From: Plumapathes pennacea
Lineage: Eukaryota; Cnidaria; Anthozoa; Antipatharia; Myriopathidae
Assembly (NCBI GenBank): GCA_964036295.1
Contig: OZ038463.1
Location: 5,943,274-6,007,273 of the forward strand
Reading direction: 5' to 3'
Length of the DNA: 64,000 nt
Positions 9,392 through 21,300 of the stretch are shown here, piece by piece. The notes under the pieces were generated by a model that made no database searches, had not been told where the DNA came from, and saw only the letters and a list, made by a program, of their open reading frames with translations. Made by a program: the position numbers and the translations under genes. The stretch's first letter is position 1, and each line of letters begins with the position of its first letter.

Positions 9392-12300
9392 ATGGGGGCG
9401 AGACCGTCCTCCATCAGTGACCTGCAGCATAACCCAGTGCTCCAAAAGTTCACCTCCAAAGCTGCGGTCGGAAAAGATGAAGAGTTCTGGGAGAGTTTGT
9501 TAGCGTTTTCGTTCCATGCGCCGTACAACAGGTATTTTATAGATAATTTTATTATTCATATACATGTATACAGCTTGTCAACTGTTATATTCCTAGCACT
9601 TAATGGTGGTGTTTCAACATTTTTATATCACCCAAATTATAAACCAGAAAGAATTTCTGAAGCTTTAATAAATCACCTCCGTCTTATTTCATAGCACACG
9701 TTACGAATTATAGCCCAAAAATTAAGTATTGTCGCCTTGCAGGATGTGCACAGCATGGTCAAACAAATTTAATGTGTTAGCCAGGAAGTTTATTTTATCT
9801 ATTGATTGATTGAAGAGTTATCACTGTAATTATTTTTTGTAGTTCCGCTGCTCTGAGGGGAATTAATGGTTTAATGGTCAATTCAAACAAAAAGTCGCGA
9901 GTGTTGATATGCAGATCGAAACTGAAGTTCTGCAATTGTATTAAACGAAATTGTGCACTTTCAGTTTCATCATTCTCCTGTGAATTTCGTTGACAATGTG
10001 CAGTATCAATCGTAACATTTGCCAATAAAAATATTGTGAACAATATTTTCTTATTATACATTGCAGTGGGTATATATGTAAATTACAGTGTTGTAAATCC
10101 TACAGCATACAATATACTGATATATTTATTCAACTTTTGTTGTATACATTTACAAAAAAAAAAAAAAAAAGCATGAATTGTTACTGTACGCCGTGATACA
10201 GTATATTTTTCTGGGTTGAAAAGGATCTGTCAGATTGTAACTGCTGCCAGATCAACTCATTGTGTTGTTGAACAGGGATTTGTGGTGTGATCCTTCGAAA
10301 CAATTTCATATCATATATGATGCAAGTTAATATTCAATTTCTTTTAGTGCTGATGCCAGATTGTTAGAAGAAGCCACAGAACCAATATGCCAAACACTAG
10401 GTTAGTAAAACATGGGCAAGAAATGATGTATTCATCAAGTCAACAAGTTTATGGGGGAAATTGTGTTGACTGAAAATATCAAGTTGGGATAATGCATGTT
10501 TTTTTTTTTTTTTTTTCTAAGCTTTCATTTTTAACCCTTTCATTCTCAAAAGTGATCAACTTCAATCTCTTACCAAAGATTATATGATACAGTATGATAC
10601 TTTATTATACAACTCCCTTAGTAACGTGAAAATACCGCATAGTAACGTGCGAATAACTCCATAGACACGTAAAAAAGATACAGCCGTATTCAACGTTGCT
10701 AAGGGAAAAAAATTTTTTTTTCTTCATTCGCTGCCGTTAATTCTTTTCTTTTGCTTTTCGTATAAAAGTCGCCCTGTGCACAGCTGGTATTTACATCACT
10801 TCTAGAGATTATTAAGCAAAGAAAGAAGCACAGAATTTAAACTGACCTGGCTTACTATCCGATACGCAAAATCGAACACGGAGACCAGCTTCTTCGTCAG
10901 AAAATCAACTGAATTTGCCGCAACATAACTAATCTTCCGTTCCACAAAATGTCAGACCACACACCACAGTTCGGTTATCAGGCCATAGTGTTTCCAGCCA
11001 GATCAATATTTCTGAGAGCAGTTTAAGAATCCCTGTCAATCTCGAAACGAGTTCTTGTCGGCATTCAACACGACAGCCGTTGGATTTGCCTCGGCGTGTA
11101 ATTCCAGTCCAAGATCTATGGCATCGACTTGCAACAACAGGCAATAATTACCTCTATCGAGAAACGGCAATGCGAACTGTACCACCACTGGTCACAAGAT
11201 AAAGTCCTTTTCATACTTCATAAGCGGGGAGAAGGCGAGAAATGGCACTCGACGAAAATGAAAATGTTGACACATCTCGTTCGTCCAATTTGTTCTGTTT
11301 ATGACCACATTATGTAATGTAGTATCTCAGATCTCCCCGAAAACTTTGCTTAAAGTACCTCTTTCAGCTTCATTGTTACTCGGCTCAGAAAACAACGACT
11401 AGAAGTACTGCAAGTACAAAATCCGCACTTGCTTACACTGCACACGGCACTAAACTTGATTGACATATCGCGCGCGGAAAAGATGTCACTTTGGTCACAC
11501 AATGTACCGCGATTTAAAAATAATTTACATCTTTTACTAAGGGAGTTGTATAATAAATAGCTTATTAGACACTTAGGCGTGTAGTACGGCTGTATATTTT
11601 TACTCGTCGTTTGTATTTTGGCTCGCCGAAGCGGCTCGCCAAAATACTGCACGACTCGTAAAAATATACAGCCGTACTACACGCCTAAATGTCTAATAAG
11701 ATATATGTACTTGTACTCAGATGGAAGCTGATTTAGCTCTCAATTCTCACTACATCACTCACATATTTTCTTCTGAAAAGGTTAGGAGAATCTGTATTTT
11801 AAGCTTGAGAGCAAAAGGGTTAAATAGTCTTGCTCACCAAAGGTGTAAAAATAGAGCATTTTATGCACTCATTGTACCTTATTATATGAAATTTTTGTGA
11901 CACTTTAATTTCGCGACTGTGAAAAAATCGCGAAATTAATGTGTCGCAAAAAAAGAGTGTCACAAAATTTGAGTGCTGTGAAAGTTCAGTGCAACTTCGA
12001 TTATGTCCAATATAACTATGTTTGGCAACAACATGAAAAAAATCAGAGCTGTCAAACTTTCTTTCAAAGGATTCAATTTGGTTGTTAATGTTGACTATGG
12101 TGGCCCATTGTTATCATAGTAAAATTATATACAAACTCATTAAAATAGATTTAAATACCTTTAAAAAAATAAGTAAATTAAAAAAAAGCCAAAAAAAACA
12201 AATTAATTTGATAAAGAAATAAAAATAAAAATAAAGTAATTTAAATTAAAAGTTAAAATTAAAAATAAATAAAATGTTTTCAAAAAAAAAAACTGGAGTA

Positions 12301-15300
12301 AAAAATCCGAATGAAAAAAATGCAACCAAAAAAAGCTAAGTGAAAAACGAAAACGAAATCGATTTTCACATGTCCAACATGGCCCAGCGTTATCATAGCC
12401 CGCACTACATCAGGACAGCGACGGTCACTGACGTCACGTACCGTAGCCTGGAAGCCTCATCGCACGTGGTTTATCAAACAGCAATGCCGGCTAAACGACA
12501 AGGAGTTTGGGATGATTTACAAGCAAAAATGAGAGGGAAAAGGACCAGGGCCGATGCAATAGGTCGCCAAAAAAACAAGAAAGGATCTGCGCCCCATGAA
12601 GTTGTAGTGCAAAAGCTGTCGTCCGAGCCGGACAACAAGCAGACCTACCGTCCAATTCAACCGCGGGAGTTTGTTCCCTTCGAGTACGAGGAGCTTAACT
12701 TAGCTAACTTGAGAAAAGCGTGCGCTCGACATTTCAGTCTTCCGGCAAGCGCATGCGACATACTGGTTTCAAACAAGGGGCCATCTTGCACCAACATTGC
12801 TCAAATCCCCCACCGAAAGGACAAGGTATGTTACATCCTGAATGACAGCTTTACATATTTCACTCACTCACTTCAAAGCGGTCCTCATATTAATTATTGC
12901 CTCCCCCCCCCCGAAACCATATACATATACTATTATGTAAATGTATTGATCTATCTGAATCTTATCCAAATTATTACTTTTTTATTTCTATTTCTTTCTT
13001 ATTGTTTTATCTTTTGCTATTTCTTTGTTCAGGTGTATCTAGTGAGGTTTGTGTTAATGCAAGATCAGGATGGGGTGCAGGAAGAGGAAGAGGAAGAGGA
13101 AGAAGGAGAAATCAACAATTCTTTTGATAATTTTTTCTCTAATACTGGTAGCTTACCGGGGGGACGTAATGCACCACCACCACCACAGGCCAAAAAATTG
13201 AGTCAACACAATTTTGGCCTTACTGAAACAAAGTTTCCTGCATCTGTGTCCATAGATGCACTTCTTATGGCAGGAAAGCTAATTAAACCCCAACCAAAAA
13301 ACAAAGCAGTTCTTGAGATGGAAAAGTTTGATGTTGAAACCCGTGAATGGCAACAAGGTATGAAGTTGGAACTCCTGGTTGACACTCAAAAGTTTTCATC
13401 TGGTGCATTCAGAGATGCTTTTAAGGCTGTCACCACTGGTAATGTGGAAGGCCAAAGTCAGGTTTGGGTTCTAAAGATGTATAATGAAAAAGCCATGAAA
13501 ACAATAAAGGAGACCCTCAACACATCCATTGAAGACCACACACGCAAGCAGGTACAAATGCATGCTGTGGCAAGGCATCTTACCAAAAGCTTTGCCTCAA
13601 AGGTGCCTGCTGAATTTGAGGAGTGTTTTCACTACAACTATGTGTACTACACAGAGTACAATGACCAACCATGCACAGTGGAAACATTCGTCCCAGGCAC
13701 CTTCACAAAGTATGTGAACAACAATGGACTGTGCATTTCACCTCCAGCTGGATGCACCACAGAATGTCAACAGTTGTTTGACAAGGCACAATGCTTGGTG
13801 CACTACACATACTGTATGACAGACAAGAAGATGATGCTGACAGACATCCAAGGATCTGGATATCATCTGTATGACCCAGAAATTGCTACAGATGAGCTTA
13901 TTGACATGAATGCACAGGAAGTGTATTTCTGCTGTGGGAACCTCTCCAAGACTGGGATTAACAATTTCCTGCAGGAACATGCATGTAACAGTTACTGCAC
14001 AATGATGGGATTAGAATCATTTTAGAGTTATGCTGCCAGTCCCAAGCTAATGAAGGTGGTTGCATGTTGTCATAACCTTCCAGTTACTGTACTACATGGG
14101 ATTGTATGCAAAACTTACAATGTATTACTGTACATCTACTGTACATTTCAGATGGTAATGTTGTGAAATGGGTGTATGTCCATTTCTTTAAATATCTAGC
14201 ATATCTTCATAATTTTGTTACTGTTACATTAAGACAAGAATACATGTACCAGTCGCAATGCCTGGTGTTACAGCATGTACTATGCAGAACTTATTACTGG
14301 CCACATCTAATTTGTAAATTTGATTTTAGAAGATAAATTTTAATGCAGTAAGAAAGATTATGTTTCAGATGTTGTCCCTTTGCAATGGGCATATGGCCAG
14401 TTTTAATATCTAACATCTTCATAATTTTGTTACTGTTACAAAACAATAATTATTATTAATGGCGTTATTGTTCCATTTTGTAGAATATTCAACCAAAATA
14501 ATTTATGTTTCAGAACATAAGCCAAAAGTATTACAATAAAATGTTTGAATGCACCTTATTGTGGTGATATATAATGTGCCTTCAGGAATAGATAAGTGTC
14601 TGCTGCATCCCCTGGCTTAACACTGGTGACCTCTGGTATTATGCGTTCGCATTCTGTCCGTACAGCAGGTGGCAGGTAGTCAACGCCAACAGTCATTACA
14701 CCTGACAATTCTGCCACTTCATCCAGAGCCTCTTGCAAAACTGGCCAGCCTAAATGATTGAATAATGATGGTACACACATTTCAATATAGCATTACATAC
14801 ATTGTGCTACTGGTTTTTCCTGAGAAACAATAGATAGATGATGGTGCAGCTGTTGGTCCCATTTTATAAAATGCATCCTATTATCATTCCACAAGAAGGT
14901 TAGACACTGATAGATTAAGTGCTTTGATGTGTTGATATGTGCTTGTGGAGAGACAACAGTTTCAAGTTGTAGATTTACTGGATTCACCCGCTATTCAGGT
15001 ACATACCACAATCTTCAGCACCATATCTTTCAGGAAAGTTAAATAAATGATTAGGAATGCCCTTTGGTAACTGAGCATCCTTTTGCTTCCTGATCCGATG
15101 GGAGTTCCACACAGTTTCTTTGAAAATGTCCATCTATGCTTGGATCACAGGAATGAACACAAAGGCCAAAAGGTTTCTAGACCAAGGTGAGAAAACCAGA
15201 AGTAAAGTTTCAATTGGGGACCAGTTTATGAAGAGGGATGGGTTGAGTGACTAAAATATTATCCACGATAGACTTTCACAAGAATGGATTGATTCCTACC

Positions 15301-18300
15301 CAAAGAGGAGTGTGTGTTGCATTTCTTGGTTTCTGTGCCTCTTCCACTAGTGAATTTACAGTACATGGACTGGTGTAAACATTACCTGTCAGTCTCATCA
15401 TTTGGATCATAATGCCCTTGATCTAGCAACATGTTCAATTGTCGTTTGAAGTACTTCTCAAGACGATTGTGGAGCTCACGCCACCATCTCTCAATCTGCA
15501 AAATACAGAAATATAGGTGAATACATGTACAGTACATGATCATTAGAAGGTTAATTTTCTACAGGAGGCATATGGAGTGGTCATTATTATGTGAAAGTCC
15601 TATACAAAATAAAAATATTCCTGATACCCCACGGCACCCCCTGGAAATTTGGTGTTGACACATTGAAAGGTTTTTGGAAGCTAGTTGTACTTTACAATGT
15701 ACATGCTGTGAATACTGTAATTCTGAAAGAAAAATAAAACCACCCTTAGAAAAATGATGTTCAACCTTAAAAATATTACTTGATACCTTATTACTTGTTG
15801 AGGGACCATATTGAACAGTATCTGCAGGATCGGGTATGTCGCCATGACCACTTCTTAAAAATGAATGTATTGTTGCCATGTCTCCAGTTTCAGTTCCCTT
15901 ATCCAACCTCAAACGGTGACTGATGACTGTAATTGGATCAACATGGGTTGCACTTTAGTGCAGAATACAAAAGAGACTGCAGTACACTGTAGATACTGTA
16001 AGCGGATGTGTAGCATGAAGCAGCCGAGAGTACATGTCTTTCTACTCCCCTCCTGGATGGGTTGCTAGTCTATCGCAGGGTCACTGTCCCTACTCTATCC
16101 TCGTAATGCTGAATGCCAAACGAGGAAGCAGTCCATGTTTGGCATCCTGCAAATATATGTACTATCCCTCATGAAAGGCAGGGTATGCTTTGATGTTCTT
16201 TTTACCCAAAAAGAAATAAAACAGGGATTCGTTTATATTGAACCACTGTCACAACAAACATTTTACTAGTCCCTTGGCACTTTGATATATTGGGGTTCAA
16301 CTGTATTATTACATAAATTTGGTAGTAAAGGTATACTGGTACCCACCTTTGGACTCATATAGATACTCCAAGTACCACTTCCCAATTAGCTTAGGATTTG
16401 AATTCGATGTCCACAGTTTCAAATAAAGCAGACGTCCACTGAATACATCCATCATTCCATAGACAGCGAGGGGAAAGGTGTCTCTAATGAAGGCCATAAG
16501 TTTGTCATGACCATCTCCAGAAAATGTGTGATTTGGTCCCTGGAAGATTATAGGAGCAAGAAGGAGTATTGAATATTAAACATAAACACATGGGTTTTAG
16601 GTGATGATGATGATGATTTTCATTTGATAATTTCATTTTCAAGCAATAAAAATATCTGACTGACAACTCAAGAAATTGGACCTTTAATATCAAAGATCCC
16701 TTGTCTACTTACCAAAGAGGTGAATGTGCCAGTCGGGCCTCTTTTTCTTTTCTTTGGTGCACCAACATTGCGTCTGCATTCTAAACCCTCGGGGTCCACG
16801 TCTGTCATAACGTCATACACCAAGCCTCGAGGAACAGGTAGCTGGTGGTGCTCACGTATTTTTCTTTGCATACCCCGATATCCAAGAAGCCTCCCTGGCC
16901 CGTCATTTTCCAGTCTAACTGCTGCCTTGACCTCTTCTATGTCAACACCATAGTCTATATACTTGATGTTAAAGTGGGCGAGTCTTCTGCTTAGTGTAGG
17001 CAAGCTCCACGCGTACTGCGAAAAATCTCGTTGAACAAAATCCAAAATTTCTTCACGCTTCAGATTCTTCAAGACGTACTGCTGCAGATACGTCTTCAGG
17101 TCGTCGTCGTCTTTCCATTCGGGATTTCTTATTCTGGCCGCCATCTTGTTCTCGCGTTACGGCACGTGACATCGTGACCGTCGCTGTCCTGATGTAGTGC
17201 GGGCTATGATAACGCTGGGCCATGTTGGACATGTGAAAATCGATTTCCTTTTCGCTTTTCACTTAGCTTTTTTTGTTTGCATTTTTTTCATTCGGATTTT
17301 TTACTCTTCAGTTTTTTTTTTGAAAGCATTTTATTAACTTTTAATTTTAACTTTTAATTTAAATTACTTTACTTTTATTTTCATTTCTTTATCAAATTAA
17401 TTTGTTTTTTTTTTTGGCTTTTTTTAATTTACTTATTTTTTTAAAGGTATTTAAATCTATTTTAATGAGTTTGTATATAATTTTACTATGATAACAATGG
17501 GCCACCATAGTTGACCTTATGATGAAGGAAAAAAAAGGGGAAATGTTGTCTGTTGTCAGATTCACTTATTTGAAACAAATTATCAATAATGAATGTTCCA
17601 ATTTATTCCACACGTTTTGATTGAAAATCATGAAATTAAAGCTGTGTCATGAAATATGTACCCTCCAAAATCGCAAAATTAACATGTTTGCCCCACTATT
17701 CCCCCAACCCAGGTCTAACTGCACTATCCATTCAGAAGTGTCTCTCCCTAGCATTCATAACCATGTGACATTTATTTGTGCTTCCCTGTCTTGTCTAGCA
17801 AAAAACAACATACAGTCTGGAAACTTTGTAACCCTTGTGCAAGTATTTCTCAAGAGAGCAGAGGAACTCCATGATTCTACCAAACATGAAGAGTGAGTGA
17901 CTTGATCATTTTTGTTACCAAGATTGACTTATAAAGAAGATTCTGCATTGAAATATTTAGTCACTTGTTTATGATCCATGAGAAAATCCATTTTCAGAAA
18001 CATATGAGAGCTGAAGGCACAAGCTTCTTGGTGAAAAGAAATTCCAAATTCCAAAAATCTGAAAGCCAATCTGGATGAAAAATTACTTTACCTTGCAGTA
18101 CCTGTAGATCATTGATTCACTAGGAACAAACAAGAGAATTGTATTTGACACAAGAAGACAAAATTCATGTTTCCAAGTAAACAATATGGTTTGTTTATTG
18201 TATAATATTATTTATGATGAAATTTCCAGAAGGAGCAGATGTTTCATATCACTGATTACTTTATCAATAGCCAACCATATTTTGATATCTTTACATGTGT

Positions 18301-21300
18301 AGATCCAGAAAACATAATATTCTAGTCATCATGCCCAATTTAATGATATTACATAGAGGATATTACACGGCGGTGCAAAGATATGAATTTTATTTTTGAG
18401 TGATAAAAACAATATTTTACAAACGAGAGCTTCCCGAGTGAGTAAAATATTGTTTTTACCACAAGAAAATAAAATCCATATCTTCAAGCCGCCGTGTAAT
18501 TTTCTTTTTATTATATTAGACACGAGTGTTTTACAAGAAATTGCACAAACAACTGTGTAAGAGCGGGAAATGATGGCAACGATATCCTCACTAGTGAGGA
18601 TATGGAAAATACGCCACTTGGGTCCCGGATGTAGTTTCGTATGGATTTTACACATGGCATATTTTCCAGTAAAACACTCATGTCTATATAACAAAGAATG
18701 ATATAATTATTGAAGGGTGATACAAGAAATAAACTTTCTACCAAAACTTTGTTTTTGTTTTACACATTTTACTCTTCTTCTTCCAGTGAGGACTTCAGCT
18801 GGGAAACATACAATGCCTTGCTGCTGATTCGAAGTTTTTGTAAATACTTTATTGAATTGCTTCCAAATGAAGAAGTCATCCAGCATTTTGGGGGCAGGTT
18901 AGAAAAATCAGAAGCAGAAGAGAATGTTGCTGGGTACACAAACCAATCTGTGTATTGCTCAGGTAATGCATGAGGAGTAAAGCATGGTTGTCTTAGACAT
19001 GGAAGCAAAATCTTGACACCCCCCCCCCCCCCCCCCCCCCCACCCAAGATTTCTTCCTTGCTCCCAGGCTCTTTTCTCTACTGACTGAGTGAGGACCAGA
19101 CCCCTGGCCTCGCTGTGTATGTCATTGCACATTTTGAACAAAGAAAGTTCCGTTGTCAATACATGCATCAAGAGTTCCAGCTTTTGGTTGGATCACACTG
19201 TATTCTGGATAGGTTTGGCTCAGAAAAGTGAGCACCAACTCCACAATCCTGCCATCCCACCTATCCACCATTTTGCACTTAATGCGTGGAGCTCAGTCAA
19301 CTTCTATCCATTCTAAAGCGTACACATGTACCAAGCTCCAAGCCTGAAATGCAAAATGGTGGATATTGTAAAGTTGGTGCTTTTTTGAGCCAAACCTACC
19401 CAGAATACAGTGTGATCCAACCAAAAGTTGGAACTCGTGATGCATGTATCTCTTAGACCTAATCCAAAACATGGAAGTAAGATTTCCACCCTGTATCACA
19501 TTGATTTTTTGTTGTCATTTACTTTATAGACTTTGGTATTTTGGAGGATCTTATTGATGGCTTGTTGGATGTTTTGGTGAATGTTCCTGTCAGGTAGAGT
19601 ACAGTTGCACTGTTCTGGACATTAGGGTATATTCTTTTGGGTTTCATGGAAGGGGGAGGGGGGGGGGGGGGGGGGGGGGAGGAGAGTTTGTCTGGGGGTT
19701 GTTTACCATTTTACCCCAACTTTCTGGAAATTTCTGTTGGAACATAGAGGCAAAACACTTTTGGTTCGACTAGCCAAATCATCATAGGCACGATTTAGGG
19801 AACCAGATAATCTGTCCCAAAAGTAAGCCTTACTTTTGGGTTTTTCTTACTTTTGATCCCAGACCCCTCAAACTTTACAAAAGTAAGGGTTTTGTTTACC
19901 AAAAGTAATAGGTCTCAAAAACAGACCAGCCTTGATCTTTCTAACTGACTGGCATCTCAACTCTAAAAGACTGGCATCTAACTACTTATTTAGCCCAAAA
20001 AAAGCTTCAAATAAGAAAAGAAAAGAAAAAAATTATCTAGGTTGACTTTGGTTTGATACCAGCTTGGCCGCTCTGAGGATAAACGATTTCTGGTGCCTAT
20101 CTGTATGGGACATTGGAATCTTGAACTAAGCATTATGGCATTTATCTTGCTCATGTACACGTTTTGCTTCTTTAGTGACACCACGTACCCCTTGCATCTG
20201 GAGTCAATCAACACGCTGTTAGTTCTGTTATCGATTCAAATGTTCGACCCAGGAGCATCCACCAACAGCGTGTTTTATCAAGTAATCATGAAAGGGAAAT
20301 GGTGAGCTACATTTTGCTCCAGCTGTTCTCTTCTAAACTCTGTGGTGATTTTCATTTCTCTGCACTGCACTCTTCTCTGCTTTGATTTGCTCTTCTCTTC
20401 TGATCCTCCTCTTTAGCTTTGTTATTCTCTTCGGCTTCTCCATCTTTTCTTTGCTTTGTTGTTGTCTGTTCTACACTGCTCTATTTTCTGCTAGAATCTC
20501 CTTTTCGTTTGCTCATGCACAAAATACTCTGTTCTCTAGGAGTGGCGAATGGTAAAATCCGACACTCGCCGAGACCCTTGTTTGAAAATCCAAGACGGAG
20601 TCTTTAGCAACTTTAGAAAATCCGAAAAACAAAAACGAAACAAAAAAACACAAAAACGAGACTTTGTGACTCGTCACAAAGGCTTTCGAGATTTCGAGAT
20701 CGTATCAAAAGTTTCCGAGACCCACGATTTTCCAGGTACCATTCGCCACCCCTTTCTCTGCTAAGCTGCTGCTGCTTTCTGGTTCACCTTCTCTGCCGCA
20801 TTGCTGATGTAAAGTTCAAAGCTAGTCTCCGTTGACAGTCTTCTTCTGCTTCTCCATTTCACTCTCCAGCTGTTCAAAGTCTAACGACCTCGTCAAAACA
20901 CTTCTTAGAAATTTCATTAAACTGGACAAGCCGCCATCGTCACTATTACCAAGCAGCGGCAGGGGCTGGTTCTGTAAGTACCGAGACGAGTTGTTGAGGC
21001 GAGTAAGAACTGGACGGCAAACTTCCAAATTGAAATTACCCTAGGCATGACCCACTCTCCTCCACAGAGGCTCCCTAGGGGAGGGGGCAGGGTGGAAAGG
21101 AAGAGGGAGGGCGTGTGGGAGACGACGGGAAGGGAGAAGGGCCCGAGGGGGGCGGGGTAATAGAGTTTAGAGATAGGTCGAGGGCTTGGTTTGTCACACA
21201 CTCTGAAGTGGAAATTTTGGCGTATGCATTGTTTAGTCGCTAAATGGCGCATGGAGAACGTCAGGCGCGCAGGGGATTGTGGTTGAGCCTGCGGTCTTTT

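What the first reader, a model, noticed from the sequence alone, without database searches (positions are those of the whole stretch)
12095..17510. DNA transposon carrying an alpha-kinase gene
Seen: ~350-bp inverted repeats, TTGA on both sides, a DDE transposase, and a convergent alpha-kinase gene with its catalytic ([13 protein letters not shown]) and C-terminal metal-site (HACNSYC) signatures intact. Alpha-kinases are a small family (eEF2K, TRPM6/7, MHCK) and are not a standard transposon cargo. Inference: the kinase could regulate transposition or host silencing, or the element may spread kinase genes and explain multiple alpha-kinase copies in such genomes.
Basis: partly seen in the sequence, partly recalled or inferred. 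Interest (0 to 1): 0.88.

Follow-up and report, generated by a model that had tools for sequence, protein, structure and literature searches.

The report
Jumping gene carrying its own kinase
This is a cut-and-paste transposon in an animal genome whose second gene is an unusual protein kinase; the same pairing has been noted in fungi, but what the kinase does for the transposon is, as far as I found, untested.

Summary
The element is real: 12096-17509, ~350-bp inverted repeats, a six-exon DDE transposase and a convergent two-exon alpha-kinase. The target-site duplication is 6 bp (GTTGAC), not TTGA; with TATGG..CCATA ends it fits IS3EU/GingerRoot. The kinase is not a one-off cargo: of 56 alpha-kinase genes in this animal genome, 32 lie within 7 kb of a transposase match (31 convergent; random mean 0.37) and 46 carry an element signature. 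All 19 two-ended copies read hold at least part of the kinase gene (sampling biased towards this), yet 22 of 50 close transposase loci show no kinase part within 7 kb. Between lineages synonymous sites are saturated or nearly so while catalytic residues are mostly kept: long-term selection. Most ends repeat their tip motif internally, upstream of both genes in the window copy. The window transposase has one in-frame stop; its kinase is intact. Kojima 2025 already states that TET+ IS3EU families of fungi carry a convergent alpha-kinase, so the kind is known; its function is not. Best reading: the kinase is the element's own accessory protein, aiding transposition or countering silencing (inferred, untested).

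The parts
12090..12095 (.). left target-site duplication GTTGAC
   Evidence: identical to 17510-17515
17510..17515 (.). right target-site duplication GTTGAC
12096..12445 (+). left terminal inverted repeat, begins TATGGTGGCCC
   Evidence: 24 matches genome-wide
17158..17509 (-). right terminal inverted repeat, ends GGGCCACCATA
12099..12119 (+). tip motif (left)
12378..12398 (+). internal copy of the tip motif (17 of 21 bases), about 85 bp upstream of the kinase start codon; proposed transposase site
   Evidence: function inferred
17486..17506 (-). tip motif (right)
17204..17224 (-). internal copy of the tip motif (17 of 21), about 60 bp upstream of the transposase start codon
   Evidence: function inferred
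12484..12825 (+). alpha-kinase gene exon 1 (most of the N-terminal domain)
   Evidence: GTATGT donor
13033..14025 (+). alpha-kinase gene exon 2 (end of N-domain, linker, kinase domain, stop)
   Evidence: GTTCAG acceptor
13399..13998 (+). alpha-kinase domain (PF02816, E 3.2e-33)
16713..17144 (-). transposase exon 1 (N-terminal region)
16347..16539 (-). transposase exon 2 (first catalytic D by position, SGDGHDK)
15787..15926 (-). transposase exon 3 (second catalytic D by position, LRLDKGTET)
15386..15495 (-). transposase exon 4 (catalytic E by position, KIERWW)
15007..15176 (-). transposase exon 5; holds an in-frame TAG at 15136-15134
14556..14749 (-). transposase exon 6 with the normal stop codon
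   Evidence: one search ran one codon past the stop

Best explanation
The window holds one copy of a two-gene IS3EU/GingerRoot-type DNA transposon. SHOWN: TATGG..CCATA inverted repeats; 6-bp duplications; a six-exon DDE transposase with an integrase-like core (broken by one stop here; that stop is absent from another near-identical copy); a convergent two-exon alpha-kinase made of an element-typical N-terminal domain plus a TRPM7-like alpha-kinase domain with catalytic and zinc residues kept; long conservation of both genes; the tip motif repeated inside each end, upstream of both genes. INFERRED: transposase binds tip and inner motifs, cuts the element out and inserts it with a 6-bp stagger; both genes are driven from the two near-identical inverted repeats and so expressed together; the kinase, aimed by its N-domain, phosphorylates the transposase or a host chromatin, silencing or repair factor, and so helps the element transpose or escape silencing. 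The kinase thus serves the element, not the host.
For: Pairing: 32 of 56 kinase genes within 7 kb of a transposase exon-1 match, 31 convergent; 1000 random placements give mean 0.37, maximum 3. Ends: of 19 two-ended copies 15 have exact 6-bp TSDs, 2 one mismatch, 1 an offset of 2 bases, 1 an 8-bp repeat. Core: PF24764 (rva_4, Integrase core domain) 83.1 bits, cut-off 26, for the C11 relative. Termini and TSD length as stated for IS3EU. Same convergent order in fungal TET+ IS3EU. Selection: between nine kinase lineages (18 rows) dS is infinite or 1.6-3.2 against dN 0.31-0.74. Co-inheritance: distance correlation over 10 lineages r 0.70, p about 0.001. Kinase: nearest PDB sequence TRPM7 1ia9, 3.3e-21; Foldseek 1ia9, 8.4e-19. 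Tip-motif repeats: 25 of 28 ends at p below 0.05. Recent activity: WIN, C1:40.47 Mb and C4:25.1 Mb kinase domains identical over the part compared; WIN and the C4 copy 99.8% identical over 5.4 kb.
Against: Of 50 close transposase loci (120 bits or more) only 26 have a kinase domain within 7 kb, 2 more only the N-domain; two with long transposase matches (C7:10311227, C3:10361091, each with one stop) have no kinase match near. With 7 lineages the distance correlation was weak (r 0.23, p 0.13), and the trees differ for C8a (kinase: with WIN/C5a 100/100; transposase: with C2b 86/86) and for C1a (with C11c 91/90; with C1b 88/90), so kinase genes may have been swapped. 34 of 37 low-scoring (distant or fragmentary) transposase loci have no kinase or N-domain within 20 kb, so relatives may do without it. 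A second relative's transposase, lacking the last part of the core, scored below the PF24764 cut-off (17.7). Catalytic activity, substrate and expression were not tested. A tree with Repbase members was not possible.
Confidence: 0.68

Rival explanations
1. The kinase is a passenger: a host gene captured once and carried without benefit to the element.
For: 24 of 50 close transposase loci have no kinase-domain match within 7 kb, and 34 of 37 low-scoring ones have no kinase or N-domain within 20 kb.
Against: Lineages diverged to 37-61% identity (7 representatives) keep catalytic residues at saturated or nearly saturated synonymous sites; the same convergent pairing is in print for fungi; the N-domain lies upstream of a kinase domain in 41 of 55 places and near transposase in 7 of the other 14.
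Confidence: 0.06
2. The kinase restrains transposition (copy-number control) or competes with other elements, rather than promoting its own movement.
For: Many transposons encode self-regulators (general knowledge); the inner tip motif lies upstream of both genes in the window copy, so feedback is possible.
Against: No direct evidence either way; near-identical copies show recent activity with intact kinases.
Confidence: 0.16
3. The kinase mainly serves the host and the transposon is the vehicle; some copies are domesticated.
For: C8:7655328-7655951 has kinase domain and N-domain (C8:7656525-7656782) but the nearest transposase match is 42.7 kb away; 10 of 56 kinase genes have neither transposase within 20 kb nor N-domain.
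Against: 46 of 56 kinase genes bear an element signature; kinase and transposase distances correlate over 10 lineages.
Confidence: 0.08
4. The element belongs to Ginger1/Ginger2 or another 4-bp integrase-like family.
Against: 6-bp TSDs in 15 of 19 two-ended copies and TA..TA termini; lengths given for Ginger1 and Ginger2 are 4 and 4 or 5 bp.
Confidence: 0.03

Closest known systems
TET+ IS3EU families of rust fungi and a truffle (Kojima 2025, PMC12730594; passages, sections 4.1 and 4.2, legends seen)
   Same: 6-bp TSD and TAYGG..CCRTA ends (stated for the rust families); transposase and alpha-kinase in opposite orientations
   Different: Those carry a TET/JBP gene between the two; none was recognised here. 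The host here is an animal (63 Wnt matches; that Wnt is animal-specific is recalled). Sequences could not be compared.
IS3EU/GingerRoot superfamily (PMC10045372, passages seen)
   Same: TA..TA termini, usually 6-bp TSD, DDD/E transposase without HHCC motif
Styx of Zymoseptoria (PMC10853768, passages seen)
   Same: Transposase said to share origin with IS3EU; a 6-bp TSD example; extra genes; the authors propose a two-protein IS3EU ancestor
   Different: Four ORFs described as transposase, GATA, CCHC and DUF3577; no alpha-kinase named in the passages
TRPM7/ChaK, eEF2K, MHCK-A, ALPK1 alpha-kinases
   Same: Alpha-kinase fold and conserved motifs
   Different: Here joined to an element-typical N-domain that gave no Pfam match

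Membership tests
IS3EU/GingerRoot | termini TA..TA (TAYGG..CCRTA) | tested here: met
   TATGGTGGCC at nearly all ends of the two-ended copies; one end reads TATGGTAGCC (C8a) and one TATGGTGGAC (C2e)
IS3EU/GingerRoot | 6-bp target-site duplication | tested here: met
   15 of 19 two-ended copies exact at 6 bp, 2 with one mismatch, 1 offset, 1 of 8 bp
IS3EU/GingerRoot | integrase-like DDE transposase core | tested here: met
   PF24764 rva_4, 83.1 bits against cut-off 26 for the C11 relative; below cut-off for a shorter relative (17.7) and for single window exons (best 16.2)
IS3EU/GingerRoot | no HHCC zinc motif before the core | tested here: met
   The 150 residues before the first catalytic D hold a single Cys
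IS3EU/GingerRoot | transposase groups with Repbase IS3EU in a tree | not testable with these tools
   No eukaryotic transposon library available
Alpha-kinase-bearing IS3EU as in fungi | alpha-kinase gene convergent with the transposase | tested here: met
   31 of 32 paired loci
Alpha-kinase-bearing IS3EU as in fungi | TET/JBP gene between the two (TET+ subset only) | tested here: not met
   Window copy: only ORFs under 90 aa lie between the two genes, and no TET/JBP match among the 7 window pieces scanned with Pfam; other copies not scanned for it
Alpha-kinase (PF02816) | HMM match over curated cut-off | tested here: met
   115.8 bits, cut-off 21.3
Alpha-kinase (PF02816) | catalytic Lys, Asp-x-Gln, metal Asp and His/Cys zinc motif | tested here: met
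   Aligned to 1ia9 and across lineages; residue roles recalled. One copy (C11c) has a changed zinc Cys, one (C11b) Glu for Gln
Alpha-kinase (PF02816) | kinase activity | not testable with these tools
   Needs a bench assay
Ginger1/Ginger2 | 4- or 4-5-bp TSD | tested here: not met
   6-bp TSDs

The most novel reading that the evidence does not exclude
An old transposon lineage, shared by fungi and this animal, controls its own movement by protein phosphorylation: it encodes a dedicated alpha-kinase whose N-terminal domain (modelled with a beta-grasp-like order of strands and helix) docks it on the transposase or a host silencing factor, and co-expression from the two matching repeats couples kinase dose to transposase dose. 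The lineage would then also be the main source of alpha-kinase gene expansions, including those reported in rusts.
Probability: 0.35. Interest if true: 0.8.

Novelty: new member of a known kind. Interest (0 to 1): 0.56.

Why it matters
It turns a short remark about fungal elements into a tested genome-wide association in an animal: alpha-kinase is a regular second gene of one IS3EU-like clade, under long-term selection. It offers an explanation for alpha-kinase expansions (PMC4469406 calls the family highly expanded in the rusts; its table shows 79 and 39 copies in two columns that I take to be rusts), warns annotators that such kinases can be transposon genes, and makes a clear question testable: does a DNA transposon regulate itself or its host through its own protein kinase?

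Tried and rejected
Four-bp duplication (Ginger-like): rejected by 6-bp TSDs. One-off capture: rejected by recurrence and selection. Viral origin of either gene: two pattern scans of viral contigs gave no confirmed relative; the BFVD fold search for the kinase gave no match at E 0.001 or better. The AlphaFold model of the transposase was poor (mean pLDDT 52.7) and not used. A second structural aligner was unavailable. The Mantel test with 7 lineages was inconclusive; with 10 it was significant, helped by one close pair (C2d/C3a). A relaxed end scan also gave three pairs with two TSD mismatches that I take as chance. Literature searches. Four papers hold both 'alpha-kinase' and 'DNA transposon'; going by listing and passages only PMC12730594 reports the kinase as a gene of a transposon (PMC3030534 is a piggyBac insertion in Alpk1; PMC3951200 was not opened). 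35 papers hold 'IS3EU', of which I opened three (PMC10045372, PMC12730594, PMC10853768). Exact phrases on transposon-encoded kinases returned 0. That a kinase-bearing animal IS3EU is unreported rests on these searches alone; Repbase was not available. The species was not identified; a fungal zinc-cluster family had no match, but its control did not ring, so that is no evidence.
Full report
WHAT IS THERE. The window (G000:C2:5943274-6007273 of a 290-Mb genome) holds a transposon at 12096-17509, 5414 bp, flanked by GTTGAC on both sides. The genome is an animal's: 63 Wnt matches (that Wnt is an animal family is recalled); the species was not identified. The outer 360 bases of the ends align with 335 matches, 22 mismatches and 6 gapped columns. 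The kinase gene runs 12484-12825 and 13033-14025 (one 207-bp intron, GT..AG, frame kept, 444 aa). The transposase runs on the minus strand in six exons, 17144-16713, 16539-16347, 15926-15787, 15495-15386, 15176-15007, 14749-14556, all five introns GT..AG and the frame kept (413 codons with the normal stop). The model rests on homology to an intronless relative (C7), not on transcripts. The window copy has one in-frame TAG, codon 306, at 15136-15134; the near-identical copy C4:25136744-25142153 has no stop there. Catalytic D, D and E are assigned by position (residues 153, 217, 257; 39 residues between the last two); the 150 residues before the first D hold one Cys, so no HHCC motif.

RECURRENCE. 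The left repeat matches 24 places, both window ends included. The alpha-kinase HMM matches 63 places, merged to 56 genes (same strand, gap under 2 kb); transposase exon 1 matches 128 places, merged to 109. 32 of 56 kinase genes lie within 7 kb of a transposase match, 31 of the 32 convergent; 1000 random placements gave a mean of 0.37 and a maximum of 3. The exception is a second, inverted kinase fragment inside an element that also has a convergent kinase (C11:8513018). Adding eight matches that I picked from a second transposase search gives 33 of 56, 32 convergent.

ENDS. I could read both ends of 19 copies: 11 with exact 6-bp duplications; one more (C3:6817654-6821948); three read from flanks, their middles only partly held (C1:40471940-40477351 CACAAG, C4:3597996-3603413 CAGTAG, C10:12552546-12559293 CATCAG); two with one mismatch (C2:22749218-22754490, C2:29848962-29853433); one with the duplication offset by two bases (C12:9894322-9898650); and one with an 8-bp repeat (C5:15523544-15525682). 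The scan covered the stretches then held, the 64-kb window included, and gave no other pair at its threshold; the looser scan gave three further pairs with two mismatches, taken as chance. By coordinates 18 of the 19 hold a PF02816 match; the 19th (C1:34183316-34186159, a 2.8-kb deletion copy) holds the first part of the kinase gene. These stretches were fetched through kinase, repeat or transposase matches and are biased towards complete elements.

AGAINST A SIMPLE STORY. Seen from the transposase, of 50 loci with 120 bits or more 26 have a kinase domain within 7 kb and 2 more only the N-domain; 22 have neither. A number of these carry stops or are short, but C7:10311227 and C3:10361091 have long transposase matches (one stop each) and no kinase match near; I could not fetch the rest of them. 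Of 37 loci with under 60 bits, 34 have no kinase or N-domain within 20 kb; part of these are fragments, but some have open frames of 330-495 aa. So the kinase marks one clade and relatives may do without it.

THE KINASE. The protein has an N-terminal domain of about 85 residues, a linker and an alpha-kinase domain (115.8 bits). Nearest solved sequences for the C12 relative are TRPM7 (1ia9, 3.3e-21), eEF2K, MHCK-A, a putative protein kinase (4kuj, of E. histolytica) and, weakly, ALPK1 (0.006); Foldseek ranks the same families. Residues that I recall as catalytic or zinc-binding are kept in the window copy and in nearly all aligned copies; C11c has a changed zinc Cys and C11b Glu for Gln. The AlphaFold model (14 rows, mean pLDDT 70.9) is good for the kinase domain and fair for the N-domain, with the order strand-strand-strand-helix-strand-strand, which resembles a beta-grasp; the only fold hints were weak BFVD hits to ubiquitin-like and CIDE-N proteins (E 0.07 and 0.34, aligned part not known), so this is a lead only. 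The N-domain has 58 genome matches, merged to 55; 41 lie upstream of a kinase domain within 6 kb, and 41 of 56 kinase genes have it. 46 of 56 kinase genes have a transposase match within 20 kb or the N-domain; 10 have neither and may be host genes or remnants.

SELECTION AND CO-INHERITANCE. Between nine kinase lineages (18 rows), dS is infinite or 1.6-3.2 while dN is 0.31-0.74; within lineages the ratios run from 0 to about 1 on few changes, as expected of decaying copies. For seven representatives kinase distances are 0.39-0.63 and transposase distances 0.29-0.54: similar constraint. The two sets of distances correlate over 10 lineages (r 0.70, p about 0.001) but not clearly over 7 (r 0.23, p 0.13). 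Both trees join WIN with C5a (kinase only 83/76, transposase 100/99) and C2d with C3a; they disagree on C8a and on the partner of C1a, so exchange of kinase genes is possible. WIN, C1:40.47 Mb and C4:25.1 Mb have identical kinase domains over the part compared, and WIN and the C4 copy differ at 12 bases and 6 gap columns over 5.4 kb: recent movement.

A REGULATORY CLUE. In 25 of 28 element ends (14 copies, several of one lineage) the 21-base tip motif recurs in the same orientation 149-345 bp inside (p below 0.05 against block-shuffled sequence, 300 shuffles; the misses are one C7a end and both C2c ends), and the inner copy changes with the tip from lineage to lineage. In the window copy it lies about 85 and 60 bp upstream of the two start codons. 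I read this as transposase binding sites that may also control both promoters; this is inference.

KNOWN OR NEW. Kojima 2025 (PMC12730594; abstract, find passages, sections 4.1 and 4.2 and figure legends seen, not the supplement) states that all TET+ IS3EU families have a TET/JBP gene between transposase and alpha-kinase, which are in opposite orientations, and gives 6-bp TSDs and TAYGG..CCRTA ends for the rust families. 'Kinase' occurs twice in that paper, in this remark only. PMC10045372 (passages) gives TA..TA ends and usually 6-bp TSDs for IS3EU and joins it with GingerRoot. PMC10853768 (passages) describes Styx, related to IS3EU, with four ORFs and no alpha-kinase named, and reports that a copy with a broken integrase gene was mobilised, which bears on the broken window copy. 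PMC4469406 and PMC5295586 (passages) report alpha-kinase expansion or enrichment in rusts and do not link it to transposons in the passages seen. Hence the element is a new member of a known kind; its kinase is a known but uncharacterised part.

MECHANISM. Shown: anatomy, recurrence, conservation. Inferred: co-expression, phosphorylation target, benefit to the element. I give 0.68 to the kinase being an element-serving accessory protein that aids transposition or evades silencing, 0.16 to a restraining or competing role, the rest to passenger, host role or misclassification.

Noticed in passing
G000:C11:8510106-8514828 (L064): Element with two kinase stretches: a full convergent kinase and an inverted, nearly identical partial copy beside the transposase exons.
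   Followed up: partly
G000:C8:7653828-7657451 (L006): Kinase domain with element-type N-domain, nearest transposase match 42.7 kb away; possible solo or domesticated copy.
   Followed up: partly
G000:C5:15523544-15525682 (L027, L030): Short two-ended derivative with an 8-bp direct repeat CTGGTGTG at its ends instead of 6 bp.
   Followed up: no
G000:C12:4819167, C2:22349053, C1:16276655, C9:8440786: Distant transposase relatives (about 30-34% identity, frames of 418-495 aa, one stop in the C9 copy) without any kinase match nearby: perhaps a kinase-free sister clade in the same genome.
   Followed up: partly
window 11557-11704, 11890-11970 and 18362-18500: Short near-perfect inverted repeats with small loops beside the element, perhaps miniature elements.
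   Followed up: no
G000:C12:6193741, C12:6649776, C4:12776804-12778639, C7:13921154-13924972, C8:13721692: Alpha-kinase matches without transposase within 20 kb or N-domain, some split over several stretches; candidate host alpha-kinase genes.
   Followed up: no
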